This document shows positions 29,804-48,200 of a DNA stretch of 64,000 nt, one piece after another. Both the position numbers and the translations under genes were made by a program. Source of the DNA: Bradyrhizobium sp. CB82 (lineage in GTDB: Bacteria > Pseudomonadota > Alphaproteobacteria > Rhizobiales > Xanthobacteraceae); contig NZ_CP121651.1 in assembly GCF_029714405.1 (NCBI RefSeq), positions 744,001 through 808,000 on the forward strand, written 5' to 3'. Positions within the stretch are counted from its first letter, which is position 1. Each line of letters starts with the position of its first letter. Under the pieces are notes generated by a model that saw only the letters and a list, made by a program, of their open reading frames with translations, did not search any database and was not told the DNA's origin.

Positions 29804-31021
29804 TCAGACGAAGGCGCTCAGCCCGGTGATCGACTTGCCGACGATCAGGGTGTTCATCTCCCTGGTGCCTTCATAGGAGTAGATCGCCTCGGCATCGGCC
29901 ACGAAACGCCCGATGTGGTTCTCGAGCAGAATGCCGTTGCCGCCGAGCAGCTCGCGCGCATAGCCGACCGTCTCTCGGCACTTGACCGTGCAGAATGCCT
30001 TCGCGAGCGAGGCATGTTCGTCGCGCATCACGCCTTCGTCCTGAAGCTGGGCGAGGCGCAGCATCATCGCCTGGGTCGACGTGACGTTGCCGAGCATGCG
30101 CACCAGGAGATCCTGGACGAGCTGGAATCCGCCGATCGGCCGTCCGAACTGGACGCGCTCGGTCGCGTAGCGCAGCGCGTGCTCGTATGCGCCCATCTGG
30201 CATCCGACCGCGAACCAGGCCACGCCAGTGCGGGTCATGCGCAAGACCCTGGCGGTATCCTTGAAGGAGTTGGCGTTCTGGAGACGATCCGCCTCCGGCA
30301 CGCGGCAGTCCTTCAAGGTGATCAGCCCGTTCTGCACGACGCGGAGAGCCATCTTGGTCCTGATCTTCTCGACGGAAAAACCCGGATTGTCCTTGCCGAC
30401 GACGAAGCCCTTGACCAGGTTCGATCCCTCCTCGCGTGCCCAGATTACATTGATATCGGCGAAGGTCGCATTGCCGATCCACTTCTTCTGGCCGTTGAGT
30501 GTCCAGACGTCGCCCTCGCGGCGGCAGGTCGTCAGCATGCCGCCCGACGTGGCGGAGCCGACCAAGGGCTCGGTCAGGCCGAACGAGCCGATCTTCTCGA
30601 AGCGCATCATCGACGGCAGCCAGCGCTGCTTCTGCGCCTCGTCGCCGCACAGATAGATTGAGCCCGCCGACAGGCCGGTGTGTACGCCCCAGAACGTCGC
30701 AACTGAGGCATCGACCCGGGCCAGTTCCATCGCGACGAGGCCATTCAACAGCCAGTTGCCGCCCGCCGCGCCATAGCCCTGGTAGCCGACGCCGCCGATG
30801 CCGATCTCGGCCATCTTCGGAATGATTGCGAAAGGGAATTCGTCCCGCCCCCAATATTCCTCGATCACGGGCGCAACGACGCCTTCCGTGAACGCGCGCA
30901 CACGCTTGAGCAACCCGCGTTCGCTCTCGCTCACCACTTTCGCAATCGCATAGAAGTCGCCGTCGATCGGCGGCGGCACATAGTCGGGCCGCCCCGTTCG
31001 TGTCGCCTGCGGGTTCGCCAT
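29804..31021 (-). CDS. Acyl-CoA dehydrogenase (glutaryl-CoA dehydrogenase-like)
   Basis: From ATG at 31021 (MANPQATRTGRPD) this is a 405-residue ACAD. It has the flavin motif IGSFGLTEPLVGSATSGG, WTLNGQKKWIGNATFAD, and the catalytic Glu in IYSYEGTREMN near the C-terminus. The LLGGNGILLENHIGR and EGTREMNTLIVG segments are like those of glutaryl-CoA dehydrogenase. Unlike the ACAD at 25815, the active-site Glu is intact. A longer in-frame reading to 31162 overlaps the hydrolase gene and is not needed. It follows the PHA-depolymerase-like hydrolase by 25 bases. Confidence 0.9.
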   Translation of the reverse strand: MANPQATRTGRPDYVPPPIDGDFYAIAKVVSESERGLLKRVRAFTEGVVAPVIEEYWGRDEFPFAIIPKMAEIGIGGVGYQGYGAAGGNWLLNGLVAMELARVDASVATFWGVHTGLSAGSIYLCGDEAQKQRWLPSMMRFEKIGSFGLTEPLVGSATSGGMLTTCRREGDVWTLNGQKKWIGNATFADINVIWAREEGSNLVKGFVVGKDNPGFSVEKIRTKMALRVVQNGLITLKDCRVPEADRLQNANSFKDTARVLRMTRTGVAWFAVGCQMGAYEHALRYATERVQFGRPIGGFQLVQDLLVRMLGNVTSTQAMMLRLAQLQDEGVMRDEHASLAKAFCTVKCRETVGYARELLGGNGILLENHIGRFVADAEAIYSYEGTREMNTLIVGKSITGLSAFV

Positions 31022-31046
31022 GGTTCTCTCCCTGCTGCGCGTCTGC

Positions 31047-31985
31047 TTAGGCTTGACGGCCTCCATCTTCGGATGTCGGATCGATATCTCCGGTGCGACC
31101 GGCCGTCCGCGAACGCGACGCTGGTTCACCCTGCCCGCTTTCATCGGCCAGAAACGCCTCAATCAGAGCGGCCGTCTCAGCCGGTCGCGTCACCATGAAC
31201 AGGTGCCCGTCATCGATCATGCGCAGCTCGGCATTCGGGATCAGCCTTGCCAGAATGCGACCATTGATCGGAGGCACCAGCGGATCGTCGCGGCCCATCA
31301 GCACGAGCGTCGGCTGCGATAGCGACCACAGCCATGGCAGGCTGGTCCACCCGGCCACGGCGAGGAGCTGATACAAATAGCCGAGATTTCGCGTGCCATG
31401 CATCGCGGCAGCGTGCCGGCCGATCAGCAACGGGTCGTCGCGAAATGCGCCGCCATAGATGTCGGCCGCAATCCGGTTCATGTAGAGCTTGTCCGTATAG
31501 CGCCGGGGCGTCGCCATCTTCCACAACACCGCCGGGCTCGCCGGCACCATCGTGAAACCGGGCGCCGTCGCGGCCAGCACCAGCCGGCGACATAGCTTCG
31601 GATATTGATACGCGAATTGCTGCGCGATCCCGCCGCCCCAGGACACGCCGGCGACGTCAACCTCTTTGTACCCCAACTCGGCGACCAGGCCGGCCGCCAG
31701 CCGCGCCAGCGTCGATGGGCGATACGGAAAAGCTGGCCTCGGCGAGGCGCCAACGCCGGGCACATCGAAGATAATTGCCGTAGTGGTCGAGAATCCCTCG
31801 ATAAGCGGCTTGGCCAGCTCCCAGTTGGCACCGATCCCGTTGAACAGCAACAGCGGCGGCTGCCGTGCGCGACAATGCCTGATCGCAACCCCAAGCGATT
31901 GCCCGTTGATCACGATTTGCCGCACTTCGAACTCGCCCGGCTGCCCGGTCGCGGATTCCTTGGCGGGGTGCACCTTCGTCATCAT
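31047..31985 (-). CDS. Alpha/beta hydrolase, intracellular PHA depolymerase-like
   Basis: Translation starts at ATG 31985 (or 31982), one base after the PHA synthase stop, giving 312 residues. The nucleophile elbow is VAGVSWGGG, the acid GRDDPLVPP and the His DDGHLFMVTRP. The pattern LLLFNGIGANWELAKPLIEG, then FDVPGVGASP, is typical of PhaZ-type medium-chain PHA depolymerases of pseudomonads. Adjacent to a PHA synthase, it likely mobilises stored polyester or edits its precursors. The last 30 residues are polar and non-conserved. Confidence 0.85.
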   Translation of the reverse strand: MMTKVHPAKESATGQPGEFEVRQIVINGQSLGVAIRHCRARQPPLLLFNGIGANWELAKPLIEGFSTTTAIIFDVPGVGASPRPAFPYRPSTLARLAAGLVAELGYKEVDVAGVSWGGGIAQQFAYQYPKLCRRLVLAATAPGFTMVPASPAVLWKMATPRRYTDKLYMNRIAADIYGGAFRDDPLLIGRHAAAMHGTRNLGYLYQLLAVAGWTSLPWLWSLSQPTLVLMGRDDPLVPPINGRILARLIPNAELRMIDDGHLFMVTRPAETAALIEAFLADESGQGEPASRSRTAGRTGDIDPTSEDGGRQA

Positions 31986-31986
31986 C

Positions 31987-33687
31987 TCACTCAAAGACGT
32001 ATGTTCCCGGAGCTTGAGCCAGGACGGGATGGCGCGTGCTGCCGAGGGACGTCCGCGCATCCACGTCCTCACCTGATCGCGCGTGAAGCCAATCCCGCCA
32101 GTCGAGCCACCAGCTTCCCTTCCGCTTCTCAGAGGCGGCCAGGAACGCGTCGGGTCCGCCTGCATTGACGGACCCGATCATGAAGGACGCCTTCGGATTG
32201 GTCGGCGGGTTCAAAAGGCTCTGAAGGTGACCGCTGTTCGAGAGCACGAAAGTCGTGCCCGGTCCCATGATCTGCGCCGTCCTATGCACCCCCTTCCACG
32301 GCGTGATGTGGTCGGTAACACCGGCAACGACATAGCAGTCGGCCTTGGCCTTGCTCATATCGATCGTCTTGTCGTTCAGCGTGAGCTTTCCGGCATTGAC
32401 GAACGGGTTCGTGAAATAGAGATCGAGATAATCGCCGTGAAGGCGGGCAGGAAGCCGCGTCGTGTCAGCGTTCCAGTACAGGATGTCGAACGCGGGCGGC
32501 TGATTGCCGAGCAGATAGTTGTTGACCCAATAGTTCCAGATCAGGTCGTTCGGCCGCATCCAGGCGAACATCCGCGCCAGCTCGTGACCGTCGACCAGAC
32601 CGCGGAGGCGCGAAGTCTCTTTGGCCGCCCGCATGGTCTCCGGGGTCATCAGGCAGCCAAACGCACTCTCGTCGGCCGTATTGGGATCGAGCAGGCAGAC
32701 GGCCAGCACCATGTTCCTGATCTTCTGCGCGGCGCTGCCAAGCGTTGCGAAATACGCCGTCGACGTGATGCCGCCGGAACAGGATCCCATCATCGAGATA
32801 TCGTCGCTGCCGGTGACTTCGCGCGCTGCGTCGACGGCCTCGTCGAGCGCAGCGACGTAGCTGTCGAGGCCGACGTCGCGATCGGCAGCGGTCGGATTGC
32901 GCCAGCTCACGCAAAACACCTGAATGCCGCTCTCGAGCAGGAAGCGGACCATGCTCTTGTCGGGAGAGAGATCGAGCGCGTAGTACTTGTTGATCTGCGG
33001 CGGCGTGATGACCAAAGGGCGCTTCCACACCTTGGCTGTCATCGGTGCATACTGGATCAGCTCCAGCAGCTCGTTGCGAAGGATCACCGCGCCCGGCGTC
33101 GTCGCGAGATTCTCACCGACCTTGAATGCGTCGCGATCGACCACAGACGGCATGCCGCCGTTCCGGGTGAGATCGTCGACATAGTTCTTCAAACCGTGCC
33201 AGACGCTGCGGCCGCCGGTGTCGACGAATTTGCGCAGCGCGGCCGGATTGGTCAGCATTGCATTCGTCGGGGCGACCGCGTCGATCAGGATCTCCGTGAC
33301 CAAATGCGCCCGCGCCTTGTCGATGTCGCTCAGGCTCGTCTTGTCGACGAAGCCGCTGACGGCCTCGCCCCAGGCGAGATAGGCCTTGAGCAAGCCGCTG
33401 TGCAGCGCGCTCTCCTTCCAGGTGGCATCGGAAAAGCGCCGGTCGCCTGCCCGCGGCGCACGCTCGGACTTGCCGGCAACGATCGAGCCGAGCTCGCCGA
33501 GGAAGGACAGCCATTGCTCGGTTGCAACCTTCGGCTCGTTGACGACGGCCTTGAACAGGACGCCCGCGCTGTCGAGGAGATCCTCGCCCCGGATGCCGAC
33601 GAGCGGATTGAGCGCGAGGGTATTCCGAGAGGCATCCTCGGAGATGCCCTCGACAGACGGGATTGGCTGACGGTTCTCGGCGTTCAT
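31987..33687 (-). CDS. phaC: Class I/II poly(3-hydroxyalkanoate) synthase
   Basis: A 566-residue PHA synthase. The lipase-like box is MMGSCSGG with Cys303 as nucleophile; Asp at about 458 (GVTDHITPW) and His at about 486 (SNSGHLQSLLNPP) complete the triad. The N-terminal domain and PPQINKYYALDLSPDKSM are characteristic. The box resembles the class II (medium-chain) type GACSGG more than class I GYCVGG. It polymerises hydroxyacyl-CoA. It overlaps the MaoC gene by 4 bases and is followed by a depolymerase-like gene one base later, so storage is built into this catabolic transcript. No phasin or PhaR is adjacent. Confidence 0.93.
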   Translation of the reverse strand: MNAENRQPIPSVEGISEDASRNTLALNPLVGIRGEDLLDSAGVLFKAVVNEPKVATEQWLSFLGELGSIVAGKSERAPRAGDRRFSDATWKESALHSGLLKAYLAWGEAVSGFVDKTSLSDIDKARAHLVTEILIDAVAPTNAMLTNPAALRKFVDTGGRSVWHGLKNYVDDLTRNGGMPSVVDRDAFKVGENLATTPGAVILRNELLELIQYAPMTAKVWKRPLVITPPQINKYYALDLSPDKSMVRFLLESGIQVFCVSWRNPTAADRDVGLDSYVAALDEAVDAAREVTGSDDISMMGSCSGGITSTAYFATLGSAAQKIRNMVLAVCLLDPNTADESAFGCLMTPETMRAAKETSRLRGLVDGHELARMFAWMRPNDLIWNYWVNNYLLGNQPPAFDILYWNADTTRLPARLHGDYLDLYFTNPFVNAGKLTLNDKTIDMSKAKADCYVVAGVTDHITPWKGVHRTAQIMGPGTTFVLSNSGHLQSLLNPPTNPKASFMIGSVNAGGPDAFLAASEKRKGSWWLDWRDWLHARSGEDVDARTSLGSTRHPVLAQAPGTYVFE

Positions 33688-34163
33688 TGTGGTCGCGCTC
33701 CGGCCGCAGGGATCAGAAGCGCCAGCGTCTCGGCGACAAGAGCCGGCCTGTCCGATCCCTCAACTTCCAGGGTGTTCTGGGTTCTCATAATCACCTGCCC
33801 GCCGTCCTTGGGCTCAATTCCGGTGAGTACGACGCGCAGCCTCACGCGCGCGCCGGCCGGCACCGGCGCGAGGAAGCGAACCTTGTCGATCCCGTAGTTC
33901 AGCCCGGCCGCGGCGTCCCGCGGGATGACCCCGATCTCCATGGCGAGCGGAGCCACCATCGCCAGCGTGAGGTAGCCGTGGGCGACGGGACCACGGAAAG
34001 GACTTTCGCGCTTCGCCCGCTCGACATCGACGTGAATCCATTGCCGATCGCCGGTACAGGACGCAAACGTGTCGATGCGCGCCTGGTCGATCGGAACCCA
34101 GGCCGAGACACCGAGTTCCCGTCCCACCATCTCGTTCAGGCCAGCAAGAGTGAGATTGCTCAC
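33684..34163 (-). CDS. MaoC-like (R)-specific enoyl-CoA hydratase
   Basis: A 159-residue hot-dog fold protein with the hydratase-2 motif: Asp in CTGDRQWIHVD and His in GPVAHGYLTL, with FRGPVAHG typical of MaoC-like dehydratases. It would convert trans-2-enoyl-CoA to (R)-3-hydroxyacyl-CoA, the monomer used by the PHA synthase encoded immediately downstream with a 4-base overlap, a PhaJ-like role. It lies 33 bases after the acyl-CoA ligase stop. Confidence 0.9.
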   Translation of the reverse strand: MSNLTLAGLNEMVGRELGVSAWVPIDQARIDTFASCTGDRQWIHVDVERAKRESPFRGPVAHGYLTLAMVAPLAMEIGVIPRDAAAGLNYGIDKVRFLAPVPAGARVRLRVVLTGIEPKDGGQVIMRTQNTLEVEGSDRPALVAETLALLIPAAGARPQ

Positions 34164-34196
34164 GGTCTCCTCCTCGTTCGTGGCTACAGCGGACGG

Positions 34197-35849
34197 CTAC
34201 ATATTCCCGTAGCGCTCACGCAGCTCCTTCTTGTTGATCTTGCCGACGCTGGTCTTGGGGATCGTCTCGATGAAGAGAATCTGCTCTGGAATGCCGTATT
34301 TCGAGATGACGCCCTTGTCCGAGAAGATCTTGAGGTGATCCTTGATGATCGCGGCGCTGACGCCGTTCGTCTCGGACTCCTGCTTGACCACGAGCGCCAG
34401 CGGGCGCTCGCCCCATTTGTCGTCCTTGACGCCAATGACGGCCGCGTCGGCAACACCGGGGCATTGCGAGATCAGGTCCTCGATCTGCAACGACGACACC
34501 CATTCGCCGCCGGTCTTGATGACGTCCTTCATGCGATCCGTGATGTGCACATAGCCGTCCGGACTCACCACCGCGATATCGCTGGTGTGCAGATAACCCC
34601 CGGCCCAGAGCTGCTCGGAGCTTTCAGGGTTGTTGAAGTAGCCCTGCGTGAGCCAGGGCGCGCGCAAGACGATCTCACCGGCGGACTTGCCGTCATGTGG
34701 CACGTCCTTCATGTCGTCGTCCACGATGTGCAAATCGACCAGCGGCCCTGCCATGCCGGCCCTGGTGCGGAATTCGACTTCCCCTTCAGCGTCACCGGAC
34801 AGATCCTTCGATCTGACGTGGGACACCGCAGCAAGGGGGCCGGTCTCCGACATGCCATAGCCTGCGAAGATATCAACGCCTGCAGCAAGCGCCTGCTTGG
34901 CCAGGGCCTTCGGCAAGGCGGAACCGCCGATCACCATCTTGAGACCCTTGAGATCGACATTCGCCTTGGCGGCGGCGTCGAGCAACATCCTCAAAATGGT
35001 CGGCACGCCGTGGGTGAAGGTCACGCCTTCGTCCTTGATCAACTTGACCAGCATCGCCGGCTCGTAGCGCCCGGGATAGACCTGCTTGGCCCCGGCGAGT
35101 GTCGCCGACCAGGGGAAACCCCAGGCGTGGACGTGGAACATCGGCGTGATCGGCATGTAGACGTCGTCGCGCGAGAAGCGGCCCTGCGTTCCCGCAATCC
35201 CGAACATCGCAAGCCCGGCCAGCGTGTGGAGCACGAGTTGCCGGTGACTGTAATAGACCCCCTTGGGTAGACCAGTCGTTCCGGTCGTGTAGAAGGTGGT
35301 CGCCTGCGTATTCTCGTCGAAGTCTGGAAAATCGTAGTCGGGCGATGCCGCAGCAAGCAGACTCTCGTATTCGCCGATGAAGGACAGGACGCCCGTCCGC
35401 GGGGCTGGCCCGTCCGACATTACGATCAGCCGCTTAACCCTCGGCAATTGGGACTTCAATCCTTCCAACAGTCCGACGAACTCGTCGTTCACCAGCAGCG
35501 TCGACGCGCCGGCATGATCGATCGTGTAGGCGACCTGCTCGGGCGACAGCCGGACGTTCACCGTCTGGAGCACGGACCCCATCATGGGGATCGCGAAGAA
35601 CGCCTCGAGGAAACGATGGCTGTCCCAGTCGAGGACGCCGACGGTGTCGCCAGGCTCAACGCCCGCTTTGCTCAGGGCCGATGCCAGACGGCCAATGCGC
35701 TCCCGGATCTGGCGATATGTGAAGCGCTTGAGATCGCGGTACACGATCTCCTGGTCCGGTGCCTGTACCCGCGGCGTGTGCCACAACTGCTTGAAGATCA
35801 AAGGGAACTGATAAGCGGATTTGGCGGTCTGAATCAGCCTTCCCACCAT
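34197..35849 (-). CDS. Fatty-acid/long-chain acyl-CoA ligase (AMP-forming)
   Basis: A 550-residue ANL ligase starting MVGRLIQTAKSAY at 35849, where GGAGG lies 5 bases upstream. An in-frame Met at 35861 and a further extension to 36107 are less supported. The P-loop is YTTGTTGLPKGVYYSH, the A5 motif YGMSETGPL, hinge TSDIAVVSPDGY, MKDVIKTGGEWVSS, and the catalytic Lys lies in PKTSVGKINKKEL. It resembles medium-chain acyl-CoA ligases of the AlkK type. First gene of the PHA-linked run; it supplies acyl-CoA to the dehydrogenase, MaoC and PhaC steps. Confidence 0.92.
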   Translation of the reverse strand: MVGRLIQTAKSAYQFPLIFKQLWHTPRVQAPDQEIVYRDLKRFTYRQIRERIGRLASALSKAGVEPGDTVGVLDWDSHRFLEAFFAIPMMGSVLQTVNVRLSPEQVAYTIDHAGASTLLVNDEFVGLLEGLKSQLPRVKRLIVMSDGPAPRTGVLSFIGEYESLLAAASPDYDFPDFDENTQATTFYTTGTTGLPKGVYYSHRQLVLHTLAGLAMFGIAGTQGRFSRDDVYMPITPMFHVHAWGFPWSATLAGAKQVYPGRYEPAMLVKLIKDEGVTFTHGVPTILRMLLDAAAKANVDLKGLKMVIGGSALPKALAKQALAAGVDIFAGYGMSETGPLAAVSHVRSKDLSGDAEGEVEFRTRAGMAGPLVDLHIVDDDMKDVPHDGKSAGEIVLRAPWLTQGYFNNPESSEQLWAGGYLHTSDIAVVSPDGYVHITDRMKDVIKTGGEWVSSLQIEDLISQCPGVADAAVIGVKDDKWGERPLALVVKQESETNGVSAAIIKDHLKIFSDKGVISKYGIPEQILFIETIPKTSVGKINKKELRERYGNM

Positions 35850-36166
35850 GGCGGCCTCCATCGACGTCTCATCCCCGCGGCCCTGGTCATGTCCGCAGTT
35901 CTGAACGCGCGGATCGCCAGGCCGGCTTGCCTCACGACGAACCCGTCGCACGACACGGGCACAAGCCTCGCGCGCGGCCTCGTCCTTGTGAAGGTCCGGA
36001 ACGGACGGCGCCCGGTCCGGGCCGGACAGGCTGCGCCGTGAACCCTGATGCGTCTTGAACAAAACCGCTGCTATTTGACCAGGAGAGGCCGTCTCTTTGC
36101 GCCGCACAACGGGCGATCCGGCGAGCCTTTAGACGATCGAAAAACCGCTATTCTGTCTCGACAACA
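35850..36166. other. Divergent intergenic region between CoA ligase and AraC gene
   Basis: About 317 bases with no supportable gene. It should contain promoters for the leftward ligase-MaoC-PhaC run and the rightward AraC gene. I saw no copy of the TCCAYWYGGT element and no strong symmetric operator. The ligase frame stays open through part of it, which is expected of high-GC DNA. Confidence 0.5.
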
Positions 36167-37294
36167 ATGCAGCATATGCTGATCTTCGAGCCATGCCGGC
36201 TCGCGCGCCACGACGGTGTCCATAGGCAGGTTCAGTTGAGCGATTCCAGGCAGCCCGGCAAGACGATCGATGCGAAGAACGTGCTCGTCGTCGGAATGGA
36301 CGAACGCGTCTATGAATCAACCAAGCTCGCGGCTGTGTTCGATGTGCTGGCGGCTCAGGGCACACCTGCCAACGAGATCCTGAGAAACATCGCACTCCAG
36401 GTGCCGGAGGTGCACTCTCCAAAGACCCGGATCTCGCTCACGGAATTGATGACGGCTTGCGAGAACGCCATTCGGCTCTCGAGCGACCGGCGCCTGCCCT
36501 ACCGCATCGGCGCCTCCATCCACATCTCGACCTACGGCATGTATGGGTTTGCCATTCTCTGCTGCCCCGACTTTCGCGACGCGATGTCCTTTGCATGGCG
36601 CTATCACTCGCTTGCCGCGCCGCTTGCAACGATAGAGTTCAGGGAAGAGAAGGGATTCGCGAGCTGGACAATTGAGCCCAACGCGATCGACCCACGGGTC
36701 TACCGCTTCATCACGGAGATGCAGATTGGCATCCACATTTCGCTGATGCGCGACATCATGGGCGCGGCGTTCGTCCCGCATCATATCAGCCTCACCTATC
36801 CGGAAGCCGACGATTTCCGCCTGCCCGCCGATCAGATCGGATGTCCCATCCGCTTCTCCAATGGATCCAATCGGATTGTCTTTCGTTCGGACTGGCTGGA
36901 CCAGGTCGCACGTCTCGGCAACAAGACGACCTATCCGATGATCGTGGCGCTCTGCGATGAGCTTCTCGATGAGCTGAAATTGCGGGTTGGGCTCGCCGGC
37001 GAGATCCGCGCACTTCTGCTGCGGGATATCGCCAACCCGCCGACGCTCGCCGACGTCGCGAAGCTGCTCGATATCAGCGATCGCTCGCTGCGGCGCCAGC
37101 TTCGACAGCAGGGCATTTCCTTCCGAGGCCTTCTGGATGAGCTTCGGAGCCACATGGCACTGAAATATTTGCGCACGACGAAGCTCGCCAACGAGGATAT
37201 CGCGCTGGCGCTTGGATTCAGCGACGCGGCAAATTTCCGCCGCGCCTTTCGCCGCTGGACGAAGAAATCACCGAGCGAGATCAGAACCGAATAG
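36167..37294 (+). CDS. AraC family transcriptional regulator (OruR/ArgR-like, Arabinose_bd-type N-terminus)
   Basis: Up to 375 residues; the true start may be later (GTG 36281 or ATG 36296), because its paralogue at 61331 begins only six residues before the equivalent of DERVYESTKLA. No convincing ribosome site precedes 36167. Residues after about 45 form the Arabinose_bd-type sensing domain (KTRISLTELMTACENA, then ISTYGMYGFAILCC). The C-terminal HTH region (TLADVAKLLDISDRSLRRQL, ALGFSDAANFRRAFRRW) is clear. It diverges from the PHA-linked run and is followed by the minus-strand fusion gene, and may activate the ligase-PhaC operon. Confidence 0.87.
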   Translation: MQHMLIFEPCRLARHDGVHRQVQLSDSRQPGKTIDAKNVLVVGMDERVYESTKLAAVFDVLAAQGTPANEILRNIALQVPEVHSPKTRISLTELMTACENAIRLSSDRRLPYRIGASIHISTYGMYGFAILCCPDFRDAMSFAWRYHSLAAPLATIEFREEKGFASWTIEPNAIDPRVYRFITEMQIGIHISLMRDIMGAAFVPHHISLTYPEADDFRLPADQIGCPIRFSNGSNRIVFRSDWLDQVARLGNKTTYPMIVALCDELLDELKLRVGLAGEIRALLLRDIANPPTLADVAKLLDISDRSLRRQLRQQGISFRGLLDELRSHMALKYLRTTKLANEDIALALGFSDAANFRRAFRRWTKKSPSEIRTE

Positions 37295-37321
37295 CCTGCG
37301 GGCTGCCGAAGCGGTTTCAGC

Positions 37322-38956
37322 TCACTGCTTTGCGTATTGCTTGGCCTTCGGGAGAGTGCCGCTGCCATGCAGCCCCTCGATCTCGGCGGCGCTGAAGCCG
37401 AGCTGTTGAAGAACCTCCTCGTTGTGCTCGCCGAGCGCCGGAGCCCGCTTGGCCGGTACCTTGGCGACGCCGTGGAGCTGGATCGGACTGCTGATCGTCG
37501 AGGTGAGCTTGCCGCCGGCGCCTTCGAGTGGAACGACAATCTCGTTCGCGCGCAGTTGCGGATCGTCGATCACCTCCTGCGGCCCGCGCACGGCGCCGAA
37601 CGTGACATGGACGCCGCTGAAGACCTCGTACCAGTACGCCATGTGCTGAGCGCAAAAGACTTCGTCGAAGATGGTCGAGAGCGCCGGCATGTTCGCCATC
37701 AGCTTGGCCGGATCGGAGAACCTCGGATCGGTCAAGAGGTCCGGACGGCCGATGGCCTTCGCCACGGCTTCGAGCTTGTCGGCGGTGATGATGAGCACGA
37801 ACCAGGTGCCGTCCTTGGCGCGATAGACGTTCATCGCCGCGTTCGCCGGGTGCGTGCGATCGTGCAGGGGGTAGAACTTAGCCTCGCACAGCGCGGCCTG
37901 GATCGACACGCTCGCCGACCAGACGCCTTCGGCGAGCAGCGATGTCGTGACATGGGCGCCTTGCCCGGTTCGTTCGCGACGATAGAGAGCCGTGACGATC
38001 GCGGAATAGAGCCCGACCGCAGTCGCGTTGTCGCCGCTGCCGGCCACCGGCCAGGTCGGAGGCGCGCCGGCGTCACGCGTCAACGACAACAACCCGCTTC
38101 GGGCCCAATATGAGGTGATGTCGAAGCCCGGAAGATCCGCATCCGGACCTTTGTCGCCGAACCCCGTGATATCGGCATAGATAAGGCGCGGATTGCCGCC
38201 GAGCTCGAGCACGACAGGCTTGAGATACTTGGCGCAGACCCCGGCGATGATCTTGCCGACACGGGTCGAGCCGGTGAAATTCACGCGCCGGACCGCCGGC
38301 TCGGCGATGATCGCCTCGACGACCGAGGCTGCATCCTTCGGCGCGTTCGTCACGTAGTTGACGACGCCGGCAGGGAAGCCGGCTTCGCGAAATGCCTCGA
38401 CGATCAGGCCGTGGGTCGCTGGGCAGAGCTCCGAGCCTTTTAGAATCACCGTATTGCCGCAAGCCAGCGGCAATGCGATCGCGCGCACTCCGAGGATGAC
38501 CGGCGCGTTCCACGGCGCCATGCCGAGAACCACGCCAGCCGGCTGGCGCACGCCGATCGCAAAGCTCCCCGGCACGTCGGACGGAATGACCTCGCCGCCG
38601 ATCTGCGTCGTCATCGCGGCTGCCTCGAACAGCATGCCCGCGGCCAGGTGAACGTTGAAGCCGCTCCACAGCGCCGAGCCCCCAGTTTCGGCGGCAATTG
38701 CCGCGGCGAAGGCGTCGGCCTTGGCCTCGAGCCGATGCGCAGCCTTGGTCAGGAGCGCACGGCGCTCGGAGGGACCGATGGCGGACCAGGAAGGAAAGGC
38801 GCGTGCCGCGGCATGGACTGCAGCGACAGCATCTGCCGCCGTTGCCGCAGGGGCCCGTGTCGCGACGGTTGAGTCGAGCGGATTCTTGCGCTCGAAGTTC
38901 GCACCGCCGACGGCCTGCCGCGGCTCCCCGTCGATCAGCATGGAAATCGCGTTCAT
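37322..38956 (-). CDS. In-frame chimera: N-terminal aldehyde dehydrogenase half fused to C-terminal CaiB/BaiF CoA-transferase
   Basis: One open frame of 544 residues joins two unrelated families. Residues 1-255 are an NAD-dependent aldehyde dehydrogenase (APWNAPVILG with the oxyanion Asn, FTGSTRVGK, and LELGGN with the general-base Glu), but it stops before the catalytic Cys. From about residue 255 (NPRLIYADITGFGDKGPDAD) it is a class III CoA-transferase lacking about the first 115 residues; its catalytic Asp seems present in AGSGDNATA. The junction is near 38190-38200. The simplest origin is a deletion between two adjacent genes. The dehydrogenase half cannot be active; the transferase half is probably not. 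It follows the benzoylformate decarboxylase gene by 24 bases, so the lost enzyme may have been a benzaldehyde dehydrogenase. Confidence 0.9.
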   Translation of the reverse strand: MNAISMLIDGEPRQAVGGANFERKNPLDSTVATRAPAATAADAVAAVHAAARAFPSWSAIGPSERRALLTKAAHRLEAKADAFAAAIAAETGGSALWSGFNVHLAAGMLFEAAAMTTQIGGEVIPSDVPGSFAIGVRQPAGVVLGMAPWNAPVILGVRAIALPLACGNTVILKGSELCPATHGLIVEAFREAGFPAGVVNYVTNAPKDAASVVEAIIAEPAVRRVNFTGSTRVGKIIAGVCAKYLKPVVLELGGNPRLIYADITGFGDKGPDADLPGFDITSYWARSGLLSLTRDAGAPPTWPVAGSGDNATAVGLYSAIVTALYRRERTGQGAHVTTSLLAEGVWSASVSIQAALCEAKFYPLHDRTHPANAAMNVYRAKDGTWFVLIITADKLEAVAKAIGRPDLLTDPRFSDPAKLMANMPALSTIFDEVFCAQHMAYWYEVFSGVHVTFGAVRGPQEVIDDPQLRANEIVVPLEGAGGKLTSTISSPIQLHGVAKVPAKRAPALGEHNEEVLQQLGFSAAEIEGLHGSGTLPKAKQYAKQ

Positions 38957-38980
38957 GGTTCTCTCCCCACTTTTCTCAAC

Positions 38981-40519
38981 TCATTTGGACGAAGGGCGGT
39001 CGTCGACTTCGACGTCGATCAGCATCGGCCGATGGGACGCGAAGGCGGAGTCCAGAGCTTTGTGCAGAGCTTCGCCATCCTGCACGCGGACCGCGAGACA
39101 GCCCATTCCGGTTGCGATCGACACCAAGTCGAGGTCTGTCAGGTCGGTGCCTTGAACCGGCTCCTGCGCCGCAAATCCGAATGCCGGAGCGAAATCCTGC
39201 AAAGCGGCGTAGCGGCGATTGTTCAGGATGACGAACGTGATCGGAAGCGCCAGTCGCGCCGCGCTCCAGATCGCCTGGATGGAGTAAAGGCTCGAGCCAT
39301 CGCCGATGATGCCGATCACCCGCCTGCCCGGCTTTCCCAGCGCGACGCCGACGGCCGCCGGCATGCCATAGCCAAGGCCGCCGCTGTCCATCGTGTAGAA
39401 CCCCTCGCTGACGAGGATGGGCAGATGCGCCTGCATCACCGGCCGGGCACTGGGTGCCTCCTCGGCGATGATGCTCTCGGCCGGTCTCATCTGCGCGAGC
39501 GACTGCAGGACATAGGCTGTCGACAGGAGCGCTGTCGGGCGTGCCCTCGGCGCAGCCGCGCGCGCCGGCGGCAACGCACGTACCGGCGGCTTCGTCCGCG
39601 CCAACAAATCGATCAGGCCGAGCCGTATGCTACCGACGGCGGCCATACCCTCCGGCGTCCACGAGGCGGTCTGGGAATCGTCGGTCAACTGGACGAGCTT
39701 CGCGCCGGGCGGTACGTGTGGCCCGAATCCTTCGACGTGATAGGTGAACGCCGGCGCGCCGATCACGAAGACGAGGTCCGAGCCGGCGAGGAGGCCGACG
39801 ATCCTCTCACGCATGGCCGGCAGGAATCCTGCGAACAGGCGATGGTCTTCAGGAAAACTGCAGCGGCCGGTCATCTGGGCGACGAACACCCCGGCATTGT
39901 GCGCTTCCGCAAGGCGCACGACCTCTTCGAATGCCTCGTCCCGATCGATGGCGCCACCGACGATGAACGCCGGCCGCGTCGCGGCGTCGAGAGCCCGCGC
40001 GATCTGATCGAGCACAGCAGGATCGGGCCGAACCTGTTGGCTGACGAGGCGGACCGGCAGGAAGTCTGCCGGACGATCCCAGTCGTCGACCGGGACCGAG
40101 ACCAGCACGGGCCCGCGCGGCGGCATCAGGGCAAGGTAATAGGCGCGCGCGATCGCGTGCGGTACATCCTCGGCACGCGCTGGTTCGACGCTCCACTTCA
40201 CATAGGGCTTGGGGAGCTCGACGGCCTCGCGCGAAGCGAGGAACGGATCGAAGGGAAGCATGGAGCGGGCCTGCTGCCCGGCCGTGATGACCATCGGCGT
40301 GCGGTTCTTGAACGCCGTGAGGATGTTGCCCATGGCATTGCCGACGCCGGCCGCCGAATGCAGGTTGACGAAGGCGGCATTGCGGGTCGCCTGCGCGTAG
40401 CCGTCCGCCATTCCGACCACAACCGCCTCTTGAAGGCCAAGCACATAGCGGAAGTCGTCGGGAAAATTGCGGAACAGCGGCAGCTCCGTCGACCCCGGAT
40501 TGCCGAACACCGTGGTCAT
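38981..40519 (-). CDS. mdlC: Benzoylformate decarboxylase-like TPP enzyme, 5' end truncated
   Basis: A 512-residue protein collinear with Pseudomonas putida MdlC as I recall it. It keeps the active-site Ser in GNPGSTELP, Glu in LQEAVVVG, His in VNLHSAAG, and the second His in GAPAFTYHVEGF, plus the TPP motif GDGSSLYSIQAIW to LNNRRY. The only in-frame Met (40519) corresponds to about residue 17 of MdlC; the first helix is missing, and upstream codons have no similarity beyond RDG. Directly next to this point is the end of an IS1182-type transposase, so the gene lost its start and promoter by insertion or deletion. Expression and activity are doubtful. Confidence 0.85.
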   Translation of the reverse strand: MTTVFGNPGSTELPLFRNFPDDFRYVLGLQEAVVVGMADGYAQATRNAAFVNLHSAAGVGNAMGNILTAFKNRTPMVITAGQQARSMLPFDPFLASREAVELPKPYVKWSVEPARAEDVPHAIARAYYLALMPPRGPVLVSVPVDDWDRPADFLPVRLVSQQVRPDPAVLDQIARALDAATRPAFIVGGAIDRDEAFEEVVRLAEAHNAGVFVAQMTGRCSFPEDHRLFAGFLPAMRERIVGLLAGSDLVFVIGAPAFTYHVEGFGPHVPPGAKLVQLTDDSQTASWTPEGMAAVGSIRLGLIDLLARTKPPVRALPPARAAAPRARPTALLSTAYVLQSLAQMRPAESIIAEEAPSARPVMQAHLPILVSEGFYTMDSGGLGYGMPAAVGVALGKPGRRVIGIIGDGSSLYSIQAIWSAARLALPITFVILNNRRYAALQDFAPAFGFAAQEPVQGTDLTDLDLVSIATGMGCLAVRVQDGEALHKALDSAFASHRPMLIDVEVDDRPSSK

Positions 40520-40896
40520 GCCGTCGCGAGACGGTCGAGCATCCGTTCGGCACGCTGAAGATGCGCATGGGCGCGACGCACTTCCTGACGAAGCGCTTGC
40601 CGAAGGTCGCCACTGAGATGGCGCTGCACGTGCTCGCCTACAATCTCACGCGCGTGATGAACATCATGGGTGCTGGTGCGTTGATCGCGGCGATTCAGGC
40701 GTGAGCCAGGAGCGCTGTCGCGCGCGTGCCACCAACCTCATCATCGATTATAGTGGCTCGGGCAAGCCATTGGGCTGGCTTCCGGGGCCTCGCCGGAAAT
40801 TATGCCATTTCGGCGCCAATCCGCGACCCCATGGGGCTGTTCAAAGCGCCGCCCCCGCATTGAAACGTTTTCACGCGGCCAAGACCCATTACGGGA
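40519..40896 (+). mobile_element. IS1182-family insertion sequence remnant (transposase C-terminus plus right end)
   Basis: From about 40519 to 40704 the plus strand encodes the end of a DDE transposase: RRETVEHPFGTLK, then MGATHFLTKRLPKVATEM and HVLAYNLTRVMNIMG, ending in TGA. This is the conserved C-terminus of IS1182-type transposases. The remainder of the gene is gone. About 190 bases of noncoding sequence follow, to ACGTTTTCACGCGGCCAAGA (40866-40885), which resembles the outer end of such elements. I did not find a matching left inverted repeat, consistent with a deletion derivative whose left side now touches the mdlC-like gene. Confidence 0.75.
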
Positions 40897-42223: not shown

Positions 42224-45200
42224 ATGTCCTTGACCTCCTCTCAGCCTGCAAGCGCCGCGCCGGTTGCGGGCGGAGTACAAGATTCCGCCAAGCTGTTCAG
42301 CGCGGATGAGACTAGCAAGTTGCATATCCTATGGGAGGACGGCGAACGCCTCTTCTGCCGAGGAGAACGTCACGCTGACTCTGATCACGCCGGTGTGCTG
42401 GTCGTGCTGCCCACAGCTGAACATCCAGCACCTGCTACTCTAGATCGTCTCGCTCATGAATATGGATTGAAGGACCAGCTGGACCGTGCATGGGCGGTAC
42501 AGCCTCTTCAGCTCGTCCGCGAAGGCGGACGAACCGTGCTGGTCCTCGAGGATCCCGGCGGCCAGCCGTTGGATCGGCATCTCGGCCGTCCGATGGAGGT
42601 AGGGCAGTTCTTGCGGTTTGCAATCCGCTTAGCGGCCGCGCTTCGCGGGTTACACGAACGCGGTATCATTCATAAGGATATCAAGCCGGCCAATGTGCTC
42701 GTCAATTTGGCTACCGAACAAGTCTGGCTGACGGGCTTTGGCATCGCGTCGCGCCTACCGCGCGAGCGCCAGGCGCCTGCCCCGCCAGAGGTCATCGCCG
42801 GCACGCTCGCCTATATGGCGCCCGAGCAGACCGGACGAATGAACAGGTCAATCGATTCACGCAGTGATTTGTACGCCCTCGGCATCACGCTGTATCAGAT
42901 GCTTACGGGGCAGCTCCCGTTCACCGCGTCCGACCCGATGGAATGGGTACACTGTCATATTGCCAGACGGCCGGACGCGCCCGGCGAGCGGCTAAAGGAA
43001 GTGCCCGGCGCCGTCTCGGCCATCATCATGAAGCTGCTCGCCAAGACTGCCGAGGAACGTTATCAGACGGCCTCTGGTCTGGAGAGCGACCTCAAGCACT
43101 GCCTTGCCTCATGGGAGGCTCAGCATCGGATCGACGCCTTCCCACTTGCCGAGCACGACACGCCCGACCGGTTGCTGATCCCCGAAAAACTGTACGGGCG
43201 GGCGCGCGAGGTCGAGATTTTGCTCGCCTCTTTCGACCGTATCGTTAGCGGCGGGGGACCGGAGTTGGTGCTGGTCTCCGGCTATTCCGGCATCGGCAAG
43301 TCCGCCGTCGTGCACGAGCTGCATAAGGCGCTCGTGCCGCCGCGCGGACTGTTCGCCGCCGGCAAGTTCGACCAGTACAAGCGCGACATTCCCTATGCGA
43401 CAGTCGCCGAGGCTTTTCAGAGCCTCGTGCGGCTGCTGCTCGGCAAAAGTGAGGCCGACTTAGCGAGTTGGCGCGACGCCCTTCTGGAGGCGCTCGGCTC
43501 GAACGGGCGGCTCATGATCGACCTCGTTCCCGAGCTCAAGCTCATCATCGGCGACCAGCCACCAGTGTCAGAGCTTCCGTCACAAGACGCGCAACGGCGC
43601 TTCCAGCTGGTGTTTCGGCGCTTCATTGGCGTGTTCGCCCGGCCGGAGCATCCGCTGGCGCTTTTCCTCGACGATCTGCAATGGCTGGATGCAGCGACGC
43701 TTGACTTGCTCGACAATCTGCTAACTGGATCGGATCTGACGAACCTGCTGCTGATCGGCGCCTATCGCAGCAACGAGGTCGACGCCACCCATCCGCTGAG
43801 GCGCAAGCTCGATGCCATTACGAGCGCCGGCGGAAGGGTTGAGGAGATCACGCTTGCGCCGCTTGCCGGTGAGCATTTCGGGCATTTGATAGCGGATACG
43901 CTGCGTTGCGAGCCGGCACGCGCCGCGCCGCTGGCGCGGCTGGTGCACGAGAAGGCCGGTGGCAATCCGTTCTTCGCGATTCAGTTTCTTTACGCGCTTG
44001 CCGAACAGCAACTGCTCAGCTTCGATCACGACGCTGCGCGGTGGTCGTGGAACCTCGAGGGCATTCACGCCAAGGGGTACACCGACAATGTCGTCGATCT
44101 CATGGTTGGGAAGCTGGCCCGCCTGCCCGCCAAAACCCAGGAGGCATTGCAGCAGCTCGCCTGTCTCGGAAACACCGCTGATATCGCGACAGTTTCGCTC
44201 GTCCTTGGGACGTCTGAGGAAGAGGTCCACGCATTGCTGTGGGAGGCGGCGCGCCAGGAACTGGTCCATCGGCGCGCGTTCGCCTATCAGTTCGCCCACG
44301 ATCGCATTCAGGAAGCCGTCTATTCGCTGATACCGCAAGCGTCACGTCCCGAGGCGCACCTTCGCATTGGCAGGCTGCTTGCGAGCCAGATGCCTCCCGA
44401 ACAGCAGGAGGAGGCGATCTTCGAGATCGTCAACCAGCTCAACCGCGGCGCGGCTTTGATCACGTCGCGGGAGGAGCGCGAGCGCCTCGCCGAACGGAAC
44501 CTGATCGCTGGCAGGCGCGCCAAGGCCTCGACCGCCTATTCTTCGGCGTGCCGCTATCTAGCAGCGGCGAGGGCGAATCTGGGCCAGCAAGGGTGGTTGG
44601 ACTGCTACGACTTGGCGTTCAACGTGTGCATCGAACTGGCGGAATGTGAGGTCCTAAGCTCCAATTTCGAGGAAGCCGCTCGGTGGATCGAAGAGCTGCT
44701 GATCCGCGCACGTTCAAAAGTCGAGCGCGCCCAGACGTATCGGCTCAGAATGGTGCTCCAGTTGGTGCATGCCGACAATGCAGCGGCAATCCGAACAGGG
44801 GTCGAGTGTTTGCAGACGTTTGGCATTCAACTACCGGAACGCCCAACGAATGATCAGGTAACGGCCGAGTATGACGCGATGTGGTCCAACCTGGGCGCGC
44901 GTGCGATTGGAAGCCTTCTTGACCTCCCGATGATGGAAAATCCAAATATGCGCGAGGTCATGAACGTCTTCACCATGCTATTCCTCTCTGCCTATTTCAT
45001 CGATAGCAATCTCCGCCAAACGATCGTGTGCCGAATGGTGCGTGTGACACTGGACCACGGCACGACGGCTTCGGGCGGCACGGCTTATGGATTTCTGTCC
45101 ATTTTTTTGGGGCCGTTTTTCCAGCGCTACAAGGAAGGCGAGGAATTCGCTCAATTGGCCTTTGCGGTGGCGGAAAAGCATGGATTTAAGGAGCAAAAAG

Positions 45201-48200
45201 CGGCCGCAAACTTCCTAAAGCAGATGGCGGTTGTCTGGACGCGGCCCATCGAGGTCGCCCTGACGTGCCTCGATGACGCGATCGCCGCTGCCCAAGAGAC
45301 TGGAGATATCATTTGGGCCTGCTACAGCTTGGAACACCGCCTGACGGATTGCTTGGTCCGCGGGGATCACCTCGACCAGATTTGGTCCGAATCGGGGAAG
45401 GCAGTGGAGCTTATCGAGCGATTCAAGTTCCGCCATGTGGCCGATATCGTGTGCAGCATTCGGCTTTTCGTCCAGAAGCTTCGGGGGCAAGCGGATGGCG
45501 CTGCCGTTGTGGCGGAATCAGCTCTTGAAACTCGGCTGCTGGAAAATGGCGTTGCGGTTGTCCTCTGCTTCCATTGGATATTGCAGATTCAGCGGCACCT
45601 GCTGCTTGGCAATCCCGAGAGGGCGCTTGAGTATGCAGAGAAAGCCAAACCACTCCTTTGGTCCGCTCGTTGCCACATTCAGTTCGCGAACTATTGCCTC
45701 TATAAGGCATTCGCGCTTGCGGCAGTTTATGGCACGGCTTCGCCCGAGAAACGGGCTGAAATCCGCTCGGAGCTCTCCTCGAATGCTCAAGCATTCGAAC
45801 GCTGGGCCGAAAGTTGCCCTGTGACTTTCAGCCAGAAGCACCTTCTCGTTTGTGGAGAGCTGGCCCGCGTGGAAGGGCGCGCCATAGAAGCCATGCAGCT
45901 TTATGAGCGTGCCGCTAGGACTGCGGCCGAACATGGCTTCGTTCAGGACCAAGCGTTGGCAAACGAGTTAGCGGGGCAGTGTTGTCTGGCCTCTGGCCTC
46001 GAGCATGCGGCGCATGCCTATTTCCGCGAAGCGCGCCACTGCTATCTGTGCTGGGGAGCCAATGGCAAGGTCAGGCAACTGGACGAGTTGTATCCCCACC
46101 TCAGGGACGACGAACCGACGCCCAGTGTGACGAGGACAATCAGAGCGCCCATTGAGCATCTCGACCTCGCGACCGTCGTTAAAGTCTCGCAAGCGATCTC
46201 GGGTGAGATCGTGCTGCAACCGTTAGTCGATACGCTTATGCGCATGGCCCTTGAGCAGGCGGGCGCCGAGCGGGGTCTGCTGATTGTTGCGCGCGGGGCT
46301 ATGCCGCAGATCGAAGCGGAAGCCACGAGCAGCGGCAATACGATCATCTTGCAGCAGGGCGGCCAGCCCATAACCGCTGCGGTGCTGCCCGAATCCGTAA
46401 TTCACTATGTGCTGCGCAGCCGTGAAAGCCTCATCCTTGGTGATGCCGCAACTCAATCCCCGTTTGATGCCGATCCTTATGTCCGCGAGCGCCAAGCGCG
46501 GTCCATTCTCTGTCTGCCCCTGATCACCCAGACCAAGCTTATCGGCGTGCTCTATCTCGAGAACAATCTCACCCCCCACGTCTTCGCGCCGGCCCGCATC
46601 GCCGTACTGAAGCTGGTGGCGTCGCAGGCAGCCATCGCGCTGGAGAATTCACGTCTTTACCGGGATCTTCAGGAGCGGGAGGCAAAGATCCGGCGCCTGG
46701 TCGACGCCAATATCATCGGAATTTTCATCTGGGACTTCGAAGGTCGCGTACTTGAGGCCAACGACGAATTTCTTCGCATGGTGGGCTACGATCGCGAAGA
46801 CCTGGTGTCGGGCCGCATAAGGTGGGCGGACCTGACGCCGCCTCACTGGCGCGACAAGAATAATGCGAAGATCGAACAGCAAAAATGCGGCGGACGGTTT
46901 GAGCCATTCGAAAAAGAATACTTGAGAAAAGACGGTAGCCGTGTGCCCGCGCTGATTGGCGGGGCAACGTTTGAAGAGGGCGGCGACGAGGGCGTTGCGT
47001 TTGTCCTCGATCTGACGGAGCGCAAATGCGCCGAGGAAGCCCTTCGGGAAAGCGAATACAAACTGCGTCAAATCATCGAAACAGTGCCAGGCTTGCTCTG
47101 GTCAGTGGACCCCAACGGCGAACCGACCCATATCAATCAGCGCACGTTGGACTATAGCGGCATGCGAATTGAGGATCTCAAGCAAGGTGGCTGGCGCGCG
47201 CTCCTGCACCCTGACGACCTCCCGGAAACTTTGCGGGCCTTCTCTCACGCAATTGAGACTGGCAGTTCGTATCAGCACGTGAGCCGTCTCCGGCGGGCGG
47301 ACGGCGAGTTTCGTTGGCACGATACTCGCGGAGAGCCTCTGCGCGATCGGGAGGGACGCGTCATCCAGTGGTATGGCCTGTCTGTCGATATCGATGAAGG
47401 CAAGAAGGCCGAAGACCGGCTGCGCCGCAGCGAAGCCTATCTGGCGGAAGCACAGAGGCTGAGCCACACCGGCACCGCGGTCTATAATGCGACGGAAATT
47501 CTTTATTGGTCCGAGGAGGCTTCCCGCATCTGGGGGCTTCCGCCGCAAGGTATTCCGAGCCGGGAAGCGGTATGGCAACGGATCCATCCAGACGACGTAG
47601 ACAGGGTGAACCAAAACATCGAGCAAGGATTGCGCGAAAAGAGAAGCTTCTCGAACGAATTCAGAATCATACTACCCGATAGAACAGTAAAACATGTCGA
47701 AGCGACTAACTACCCTGTGTTCTCGGCAAACGGAGAGCTTGTTGAGATTGTCGCCACGGGCGTCGACGTGACAGAGCGCAAGCGCGCCGAGCAAGCATTG
47801 CGGCAAAGCGAAGCAAGGTTCCAGCGTCTGGTCGATTCCAACATCATCGGAATTTTCATTTGGGATTTCGACGGTCGCATTCTTGGGGCCAACGACGAAT
47901 TTCTTCGCATGGTGGGTTACGCCCGCGAAGACCTGGTCGCGGGCAGCGTCTGGTGGTCGGAAATGACGCCGCCCGACTGGCGCGACAGGAATAACGCAAG
48001 GATCGAACAGCAAAAAGCCAGCGGTCGGTTCCAACCATTCGAAAAGGAATTCAGCAGGAAAGACGGTAGTCGTGTGCCGATACTGATCGGTGGGGCAACG
48101 TTTGAAGAGGGCGGTAACCAGGGCATCGCATTCGTGCTCGATCTGACGGAGCGCAAGCGCGCAGAGGAACGCCTCCGCGTGCAGCACACTGTTGTGCAGA

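What the first reader, a model, noticed from the sequence alone, without database searches (positions are those of the whole stretch)
37322..38956. In-frame fusion of an aldehyde dehydrogenase front half to a CaiB/BaiF CoA-transferase back half
Seen: residues 1-255 are ALDH up to LELGGN, then residues from NPRLIYADITGFG are a class III CoA-transferase starting at about its residue 115. The ALDH lacks its Cys; the transferase retains the apparent catalytic Asp (AGSGDNATA) but lacks its first subdomain. Inference: a deletion of roughly 1.1-1.2 kb fused two neighbouring genes, or it is an assembly collapse. The intact open frame over 1.6 kb means it is recent, or selected for some function.
Basis: partly seen in the sequence, partly recalled or inferred. 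Interest (0 to 1): 0.72.

Follow-up and report, generated by a model that had tools for sequence, protein, structure and literature searches.

The report
Chance fusion of two broken genes
A bacterial genome carries an unusual open reading frame in which the front half of one metabolic gene is joined to the back half of another; it appears to be recent rearrangement debris beside a transposon remnant, not a new kind of enzyme.

Summary
Window 37322-38956(-) is one open frame. Codons 1-254 are the N-terminal half of a benzaldehyde-type aldehyde dehydrogenase (ALDH); codons 255-544 are a class III CoA-transferase (CoAT) lacking its first ~119-124 residues. I found the join nowhere else: 0 of 264 other genomes of the genus, and only itself among the listed hits of two protein searches.

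One short deletion between neighbouring genes looks too simple. The CoAT half belongs to a PhaC-MaoC-FadD/AraC/enoyl-CoA-hydratase/CoAT cluster, intact in a sister genome with no ALDH there. The ALDH half belongs to an mdlC (benzoylformate decarboxylase)-ALDH unit, found intact elsewhere with no close CoAT beside it. In the window the mdlC-ALDH piece (~2.33 kb) is broken at both ends: mdlC has lost its N-terminus and abuts the last 370 bp of an insertion sequence, and ALDH runs into CoAT. The hydratase gene is also gone. The two joins share only 2 and about 4 bases, pointing to illegitimate recombination.

The ALDH half lacks its cysteine, the CoAT half its N-terminal region. Neither shows relaxed selection, so the join is young or constrained. 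Most likely a recent chimeric pseudogene; low interest.

The parts
38195..38956 (-). N-terminal 254 codons of a benzaldehyde-type NAD aldehyde dehydrogenase; lacks about 229 C-terminal residues including the Cys
   Evidence: Pfam PF00171; 230 of 254 identical to P0121, 483 aa; lost length
37322..38194 (-). C-terminal 290 codons of a class III (CaiB/BaiF) CoA-transferase; lacks its first ~119-124 residues
   Evidence: Pfam PF02515 profile positions 111-366; 90% DNA identity to G055 over 37340-38194
38193..38194 (-). Junction J2 ALDH|CoA-transferase; only AA (first two bases of the Asn codon) fits both parental relatives
   Evidence: DNA of relatives aligned across the join
38981..40519 (-). mdlC-type benzoylformate decarboxylase missing its N-terminus (37 residues of the L146 open frame as read from its first possible start); in frame with the ALDH start, with a TGA at 38981-38983 between
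   Evidence: NCBIfam NF005485; comparison with L146, L101, L102
40520..40889 (+). Last 370 bp of a ~1.69-kb insertion sequence: tail of a DDE transposase (stop 40702-40704) plus the right end; J3 with mdlC at 40520-40523 (GCCG fits both sides)
   Evidence: Pfam PF01609; nearly full-length copies elsewhere in the genome; junction
37294..37339 (.). J1: 46 bp where the sister genome G055 has about 1.0 kb holding an enoyl-CoA hydratase gene
   Evidence: Alignment to L038 resumes at 37340 after skipping L038 8373-9376; hydratase ORF L038 8500-9279 (name is my reading of the translation)
36167..37294 (+). AraC-family regulator (QhpR-like), collinear with G055
   Evidence: Pfam PF12625, PF12833; QhpR model matched below its cut-off; 90% aa to G055
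31987..36107 (-). Collinear host cluster: PhaC-like synthase, MaoC-like protein, long-chain-fatty-acid-CoA ligase
   Evidence: MaoC label is my reading

Best explanation
A young chimeric pseudogene made by illegitimate recombination. A ~2.33-kb piece of an mdlC-ALDH unit (mandelate or benzoylformate breakdown, by the gene names) came to lie beside a decaying PhaC/FadD/AraC/CoA-transferase cluster and an insertion sequence on the 900-kb contig. Breaks with 2-4 bp of overlap cut mdlC at its 5' end into the insertion sequence, and cut the ALDH in its middle into the CoA-transferase. The join happened to be in frame (one chance in three), so one long ORF remains. The product lacks the ALDH cysteine and C-terminal half, and lacks the CoA-transferase N-terminal region, so it is most likely inactive for both reactions. 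Shown: the anatomy, relatives of both parents, the two extra breaks, uniqueness in the collections searched, and no detectable relaxed selection. Inferred: the order of events, the mechanism of breakage, and loss of activity.
For: Domain switch within one codon. Relatives of the parents are intact in different neighbourhoods: CoA-transferase with enoyl-CoA hydratase and acyl-CoA dehydrogenase genes in G055 and B. iriomotense; mdlC with full-length ALDH in 9 of 10 fetched loci and as neighbouring annotated genes on two Burkholderiales plasmids. J2 overlap 2 bp; J3 overlap about 4 bp inside an insertion sequence. Enoyl-CoA hydratase gene missing. Join in 1 of 265 genomes of the genus, the window's own. 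In the whole-length protein search the other 119 listed hits cover only 52-53% of the query. Window-branch N/S is like that of the sister branch: CoA-transferase 0.237 vs 0.227, ALDH 0.264 vs 0.284. Paralogues remain in the genome: CoA-transferases at 87% and 84%, an ALDH at 61% over the shared half.
Against: The ORF has no stop or frameshift and shows no relaxed selection, which also fits a retained function. No reads are available to exclude an assembly error. No relative with a half-way state was found, so the order of events is inferred. The host-cluster context rests on two relatives only (AraC and FadD beside the CoA-transferase in L038 and L044). Activity and expression were not tested.
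Confidence: 0.82

Rival explanations
1. One simple deletion of 1.1-1.2 kb between directly adjacent, complete ALDH and CoA-transferase genes.
For: The missing coding parts sum to about 1.06 kb (229 ALDH codons and 124 CoA-transferase codons), and both genes point the same way.
Against: No locus with the two genes side by side was found: 0 of 62 CoA-transferase loci and 0 of 10 mdlC loci. Extra breaks at 40520 and 37294-37339 show a more complex history.
Confidence: 0.08
2. Assembly or library chimera: the join does not exist in the cell.
For: It is known from this genome only; no reads could be inspected. The insertion sequence next to mdlC is repeated in the genome.
Against: The genome is in 2 contigs. 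The join itself shares only 2 bp between the parents, so it is not a repeat at which assemblers collapse. The ALDH C-terminal half (sought with the Burkholderia ALDH of L102) and the matching CoA-transferase N-terminal part were not found elsewhere in the genome at comparable identity.
Confidence: 0.06
3. A functional new two-domain protein kept by selection, for example using the NAD-binding part of ALDH as a scaffold.
For: Open frame and low Ka/Ks in both halves (0.069 and 0.058), with no excess of amino-acid changes on the window branch.
Against: Low Ka/Ks can be inherited from the intact parents; a recent neutral join predicts the same, since a neutral period of a few percent of the branch would not be visible. 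Cys lost; CoA-transferase N-terminal region lost; no second occurrence found.
Confidence: 0.04

Closest known systems
mdlC-linked benzaldehyde/salicylaldehyde/vanillin-type NAD aldehyde dehydrogenases (best solved matches 6qhn, 9ihb, 4jz6)
   Same: Residues 1-254, same gene order after mdlC, Glu of LELGG kept
   Different: No C-terminal half, no Cys of NSGQIC
Class III CoA-transferases, CaiB/BaiF family (solved matches 10uh, 4hl6, 1p5h)
   Same: C-terminal part from profile position 111 on, Asp aligned
   Different: First ~119-124 residues replaced by ALDH sequence
Natural decarboxylase-ALDH fusions (P0240, 1037 aa; the 1041-aa ORF of L146)
   Same: Same mdlC and ALDH genes in the same frame
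   Different: There both enzymes are present at full length; in the window a TGA lies between them and each has lost an end
Rearrangement-born chimeric ORFs and gene remnants beside insertion sequences (general class, recalled)
   Same: Non-homologous joins with a few bp of overlap, single occurrence
   Different: Here the frame happens to be kept over 1.6 kb

Membership tests
Aldehyde dehydrogenase (PF00171) | Match along the profile including the catalytic domain | tested here: not met
   Only profile positions 8-243 of 461
Aldehyde dehydrogenase (PF00171) | Nucleophilic Cys (role recalled) | tested here: not met
   SGQIC absent; C285 in P0121
Aldehyde dehydrogenase (PF00171) | Conserved Glu of LELGG (role recalled) | tested here: met
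   E251 present
Class III CoA-transferase (PF02515) | Complete N-terminal region (holds most CoA contacts; recalled) | tested here: not met
   Profile positions 1-110 missing; starts at residue 120 of P0002
Class III CoA-transferase (PF02515) | Conserved Asp (role recalled) | tested here: met
   D309, aligned to an Asp of 4hl6
Class III CoA-transferase (PF02515) | Interlocked dimer and CoA transfer activity | not testable with these tools
   Needs protein work
A true ALDH-CoA-transferase fusion family | Same two-domain architecture in other genomes | tested here: not met
   0 of 99 other genomes in the listed rows (list cut, 14 candidates scored per genome as a rule); 0 of 264 others in the genus at 3 or fewer mismatches over the join; only itself among the 120 listed of about 8000 scored in each

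The most novel reading that the evidence does not exclude
The chimera is translated and has been captured by selection as a new protein, caught so early that only one lineage carries it.
Probability: 0.04. Interest if true: 0.5.

Novelty: new member of a known kind. Interest (0 to 1): 0.15.

Why it matters
It shows how rearrangement beside an insertion sequence can leave a long, clean-looking ORF that annotation would call a two-domain enzyme. It warns against inferring an ALDH-CoA-transferase pathway link from this gene. If the protein were made and folded, it would be an example of a gene fusion at birth.

Tried and rejected
True fusion family: rejected, no second example found. In one search a few rows reach up to residue 212, and one locus, L076, was reported from query residue 217. 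For L076, searches found no ALDH-half match (E 1e-20, 1e-5), so I treat that extension as chance; the rows reaching 212 were not examined further.

Reciprocal exchange inside the genome: looked for the missing ALDH C-terminal half (with the Burkholderia ALDH of L102 as query) and the CoA-transferase N-terminal part elsewhere in the genome. Only paralogues were found: best other ALDH 64%; best CoA-transferase cluster DNA 75-82% against 90% at the window.

Foreign base composition of the mdlC-ALDH piece: GC 0.66-0.68 and GC3 about 0.81, against 0.60-0.66 and 0.76-0.82 in the five neighbouring segments measured, so uninformative.

Structure prediction: alignment A1 was built but not folded, because its ALDH rows also align over the CoA-transferase half and a model would not decide the question.

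Literature: four searches, seen as listings and openings of abstracts only: 10 of 38 papers listed; 0 papers; 8 of 9 listed; 5 of 5 listed. By title none is about this fusion; no paper was opened.

Full report
Check. The ORF 37322-38956(-) exists and has the two domains claimed. The switch falls between codons 254 and 255. Before it the protein is 230 of 254 identical to the 483-aa ALDH P0121; after it, 4 of 30. From N255 it follows the CoA-transferase P0002 from residue 120. The DNA up to GGCGGCAA fits the ALDH relatives and from AATCCG fits the CoA-transferase relatives, so only the two bases AA are shared (the closest ALDH DNA that I held, L146, agrees). The window lies on the 900-kb contig of a two-contig, 10.14-Mb genome.

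Where the back half comes from. In G055 (locus L038) the order is PhaC, MaoC, FadD, AraC, enoyl-CoA hydratase, full CoA-transferase (ORF 413 aa from its first possible start), a second enoyl-CoA hydratase, acyl-CoA dehydrogenase (names of the genes after AraC, and of MaoC, are my reading of the translations). The stretch of the window that I compared (from 30001) is collinear in two blocks, 30008-31039 and 31107-37293, at about 88% DNA identity, skips the first hydratase, and resumes at 37340-38194 at 90%. B. iriomotense (L044) has AraC, FadD and MaoC beside a full CoA-transferase and the hydratase too, with one more ORF between the hydratase and AraC. These are the only two of 62 CoA-transferase loci with the AraC gene at E 1e-20, so the ancestral context rests on two relatives. 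The window's own contig carries two further clusters of this kind, at C2:818-824 kb and C2:837-845 kb, at 75-82% DNA identity to G055.

Where the front half comes from. mdlC and an aldehyde dehydrogenase are annotated side by side on plasmids of Variovorax and Burkholderia. In the genus, 11 of 265 genomes, the window's own included, have mdlC at 71% identity or more among the listed matches. I fetched the other 10. In 9 of 10 a full-length ALDH lies next to mdlC; in 0 of 10 is there a close CoA-transferase in the 12 kb. One, L147, has a 36% partial match elsewhere in its stretch. G055 was among the 265; its best match has E 2.3e-151, the level of the ~51%-identical paralogue that the genus shares, so it seems to lack this mdlC.

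A second break next door. The mdlC ORF starts at an internal Met: the three relatives compared (L101, L102, L146) have 23 to 37 further residues upstream. At 40520 it meets the last 370 bp of an insertion sequence. Nearly full-length copies (1.63-1.69 kb) lie at six other places in the genome, and one other copy, L157, is also reduced to its tail. The family name IS1182 comes to mind from recall only. GCCG at 40520-40523 fits both sides, using L146 as stand-in for the lost mdlC parent. The mdlC-ALDH piece is therefore a fragment cut at both ends.

Uniqueness. A 42-base pattern over J2 with up to 3 mismatches was found in 1 of 265 genomes, the window's own. In one search, 0 of 99 other genomes gave a match covering both halves among the listed rows; that list was cut, but a true fusion should rank near the top. 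In some searches the 120 best of about 8000 scored proteins were listed; only the window's protein has both Pfam families. These collections hold one genome per species or 90% clusters, so near-identical strains may be hidden.

Selection. Pairwise Ka/Ks is 0.069 for the ALDH half against L146 and 0.058 for the CoA-transferase half against L038, similar to relative-to-relative values (0.089 and 0.059) and to neighbouring genes against L038 (0.074-0.206). A three-point split gives nearly the same N/S on the window branch as on the sister branch; it uses raw counts with outgroups at Ks above 0.8, so it is rough. If the fusion had been neutral for 5% of the branch, 18 or fewer amino-acid changes would be seen with probability 0.02 to 0.11, and for 10% with 0.0001 to 0.009, for an assumed neutral N/S of 3.2 down to 2. 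So the fusion is young if neutral, or else constrained; the data cannot separate the two.

Function. The ALDH half keeps E251 but ends 31 residues before the position of the cysteine (C285 in P0121). The CoA-transferase half keeps D309 but lacks the N-terminal ~119-124 residues. From general knowledge of both families neither active site should form; this was not tested. The DNA upstream of mdlC has also been replaced by insertion-sequence DNA; promoters and expression were not examined.

Verdict. A real, single-occurrence, in-frame chimeric ORF; most likely a recent pseudogene of rearrangement.

Noticed in passing
window 38957-38983; L146 4508-7633; P0240: In G149 (L146) and in P0240 (1037 aa, 39 member sequences) mdlC and ALDH form one continuous protein that would join two consecutive steps (benzoylformate to benzaldehyde to benzoate; roles from the gene names). 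In the window the two genes are in the same frame with a similar linker and a TGA between. More distant TPP-enzyme-ALDH fusions of about 960-1110 aa are also listed.
   Followed up: partly
G000:C2 about 717219 (L157 position 1488) and window 40520: Two copies of the same insertion sequence have lost their left part at points only 13 bp apart, beside a small inverted repeat CCGTC-GCGA-GACGG at window 40521-40534. Possibly a breakage hotspot, possibly chance.
   Followed up: partly
window 42224-49789 (+): A 2521-aa protein with protein kinase, AAA ATPase, GAF, several PAS, HisKA and HATPase domains: a giant hybrid sensor kinase next to the debris.
   Followed up: no
P0124 (Bradyrhizobium MAG, 645 aa): mdlC-ALDH fusion fragment in which about 30 residues around LELGG, the very place of the window's break, are missing (read by eye against P0121); may be an assembly fault.
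   Followed up: no
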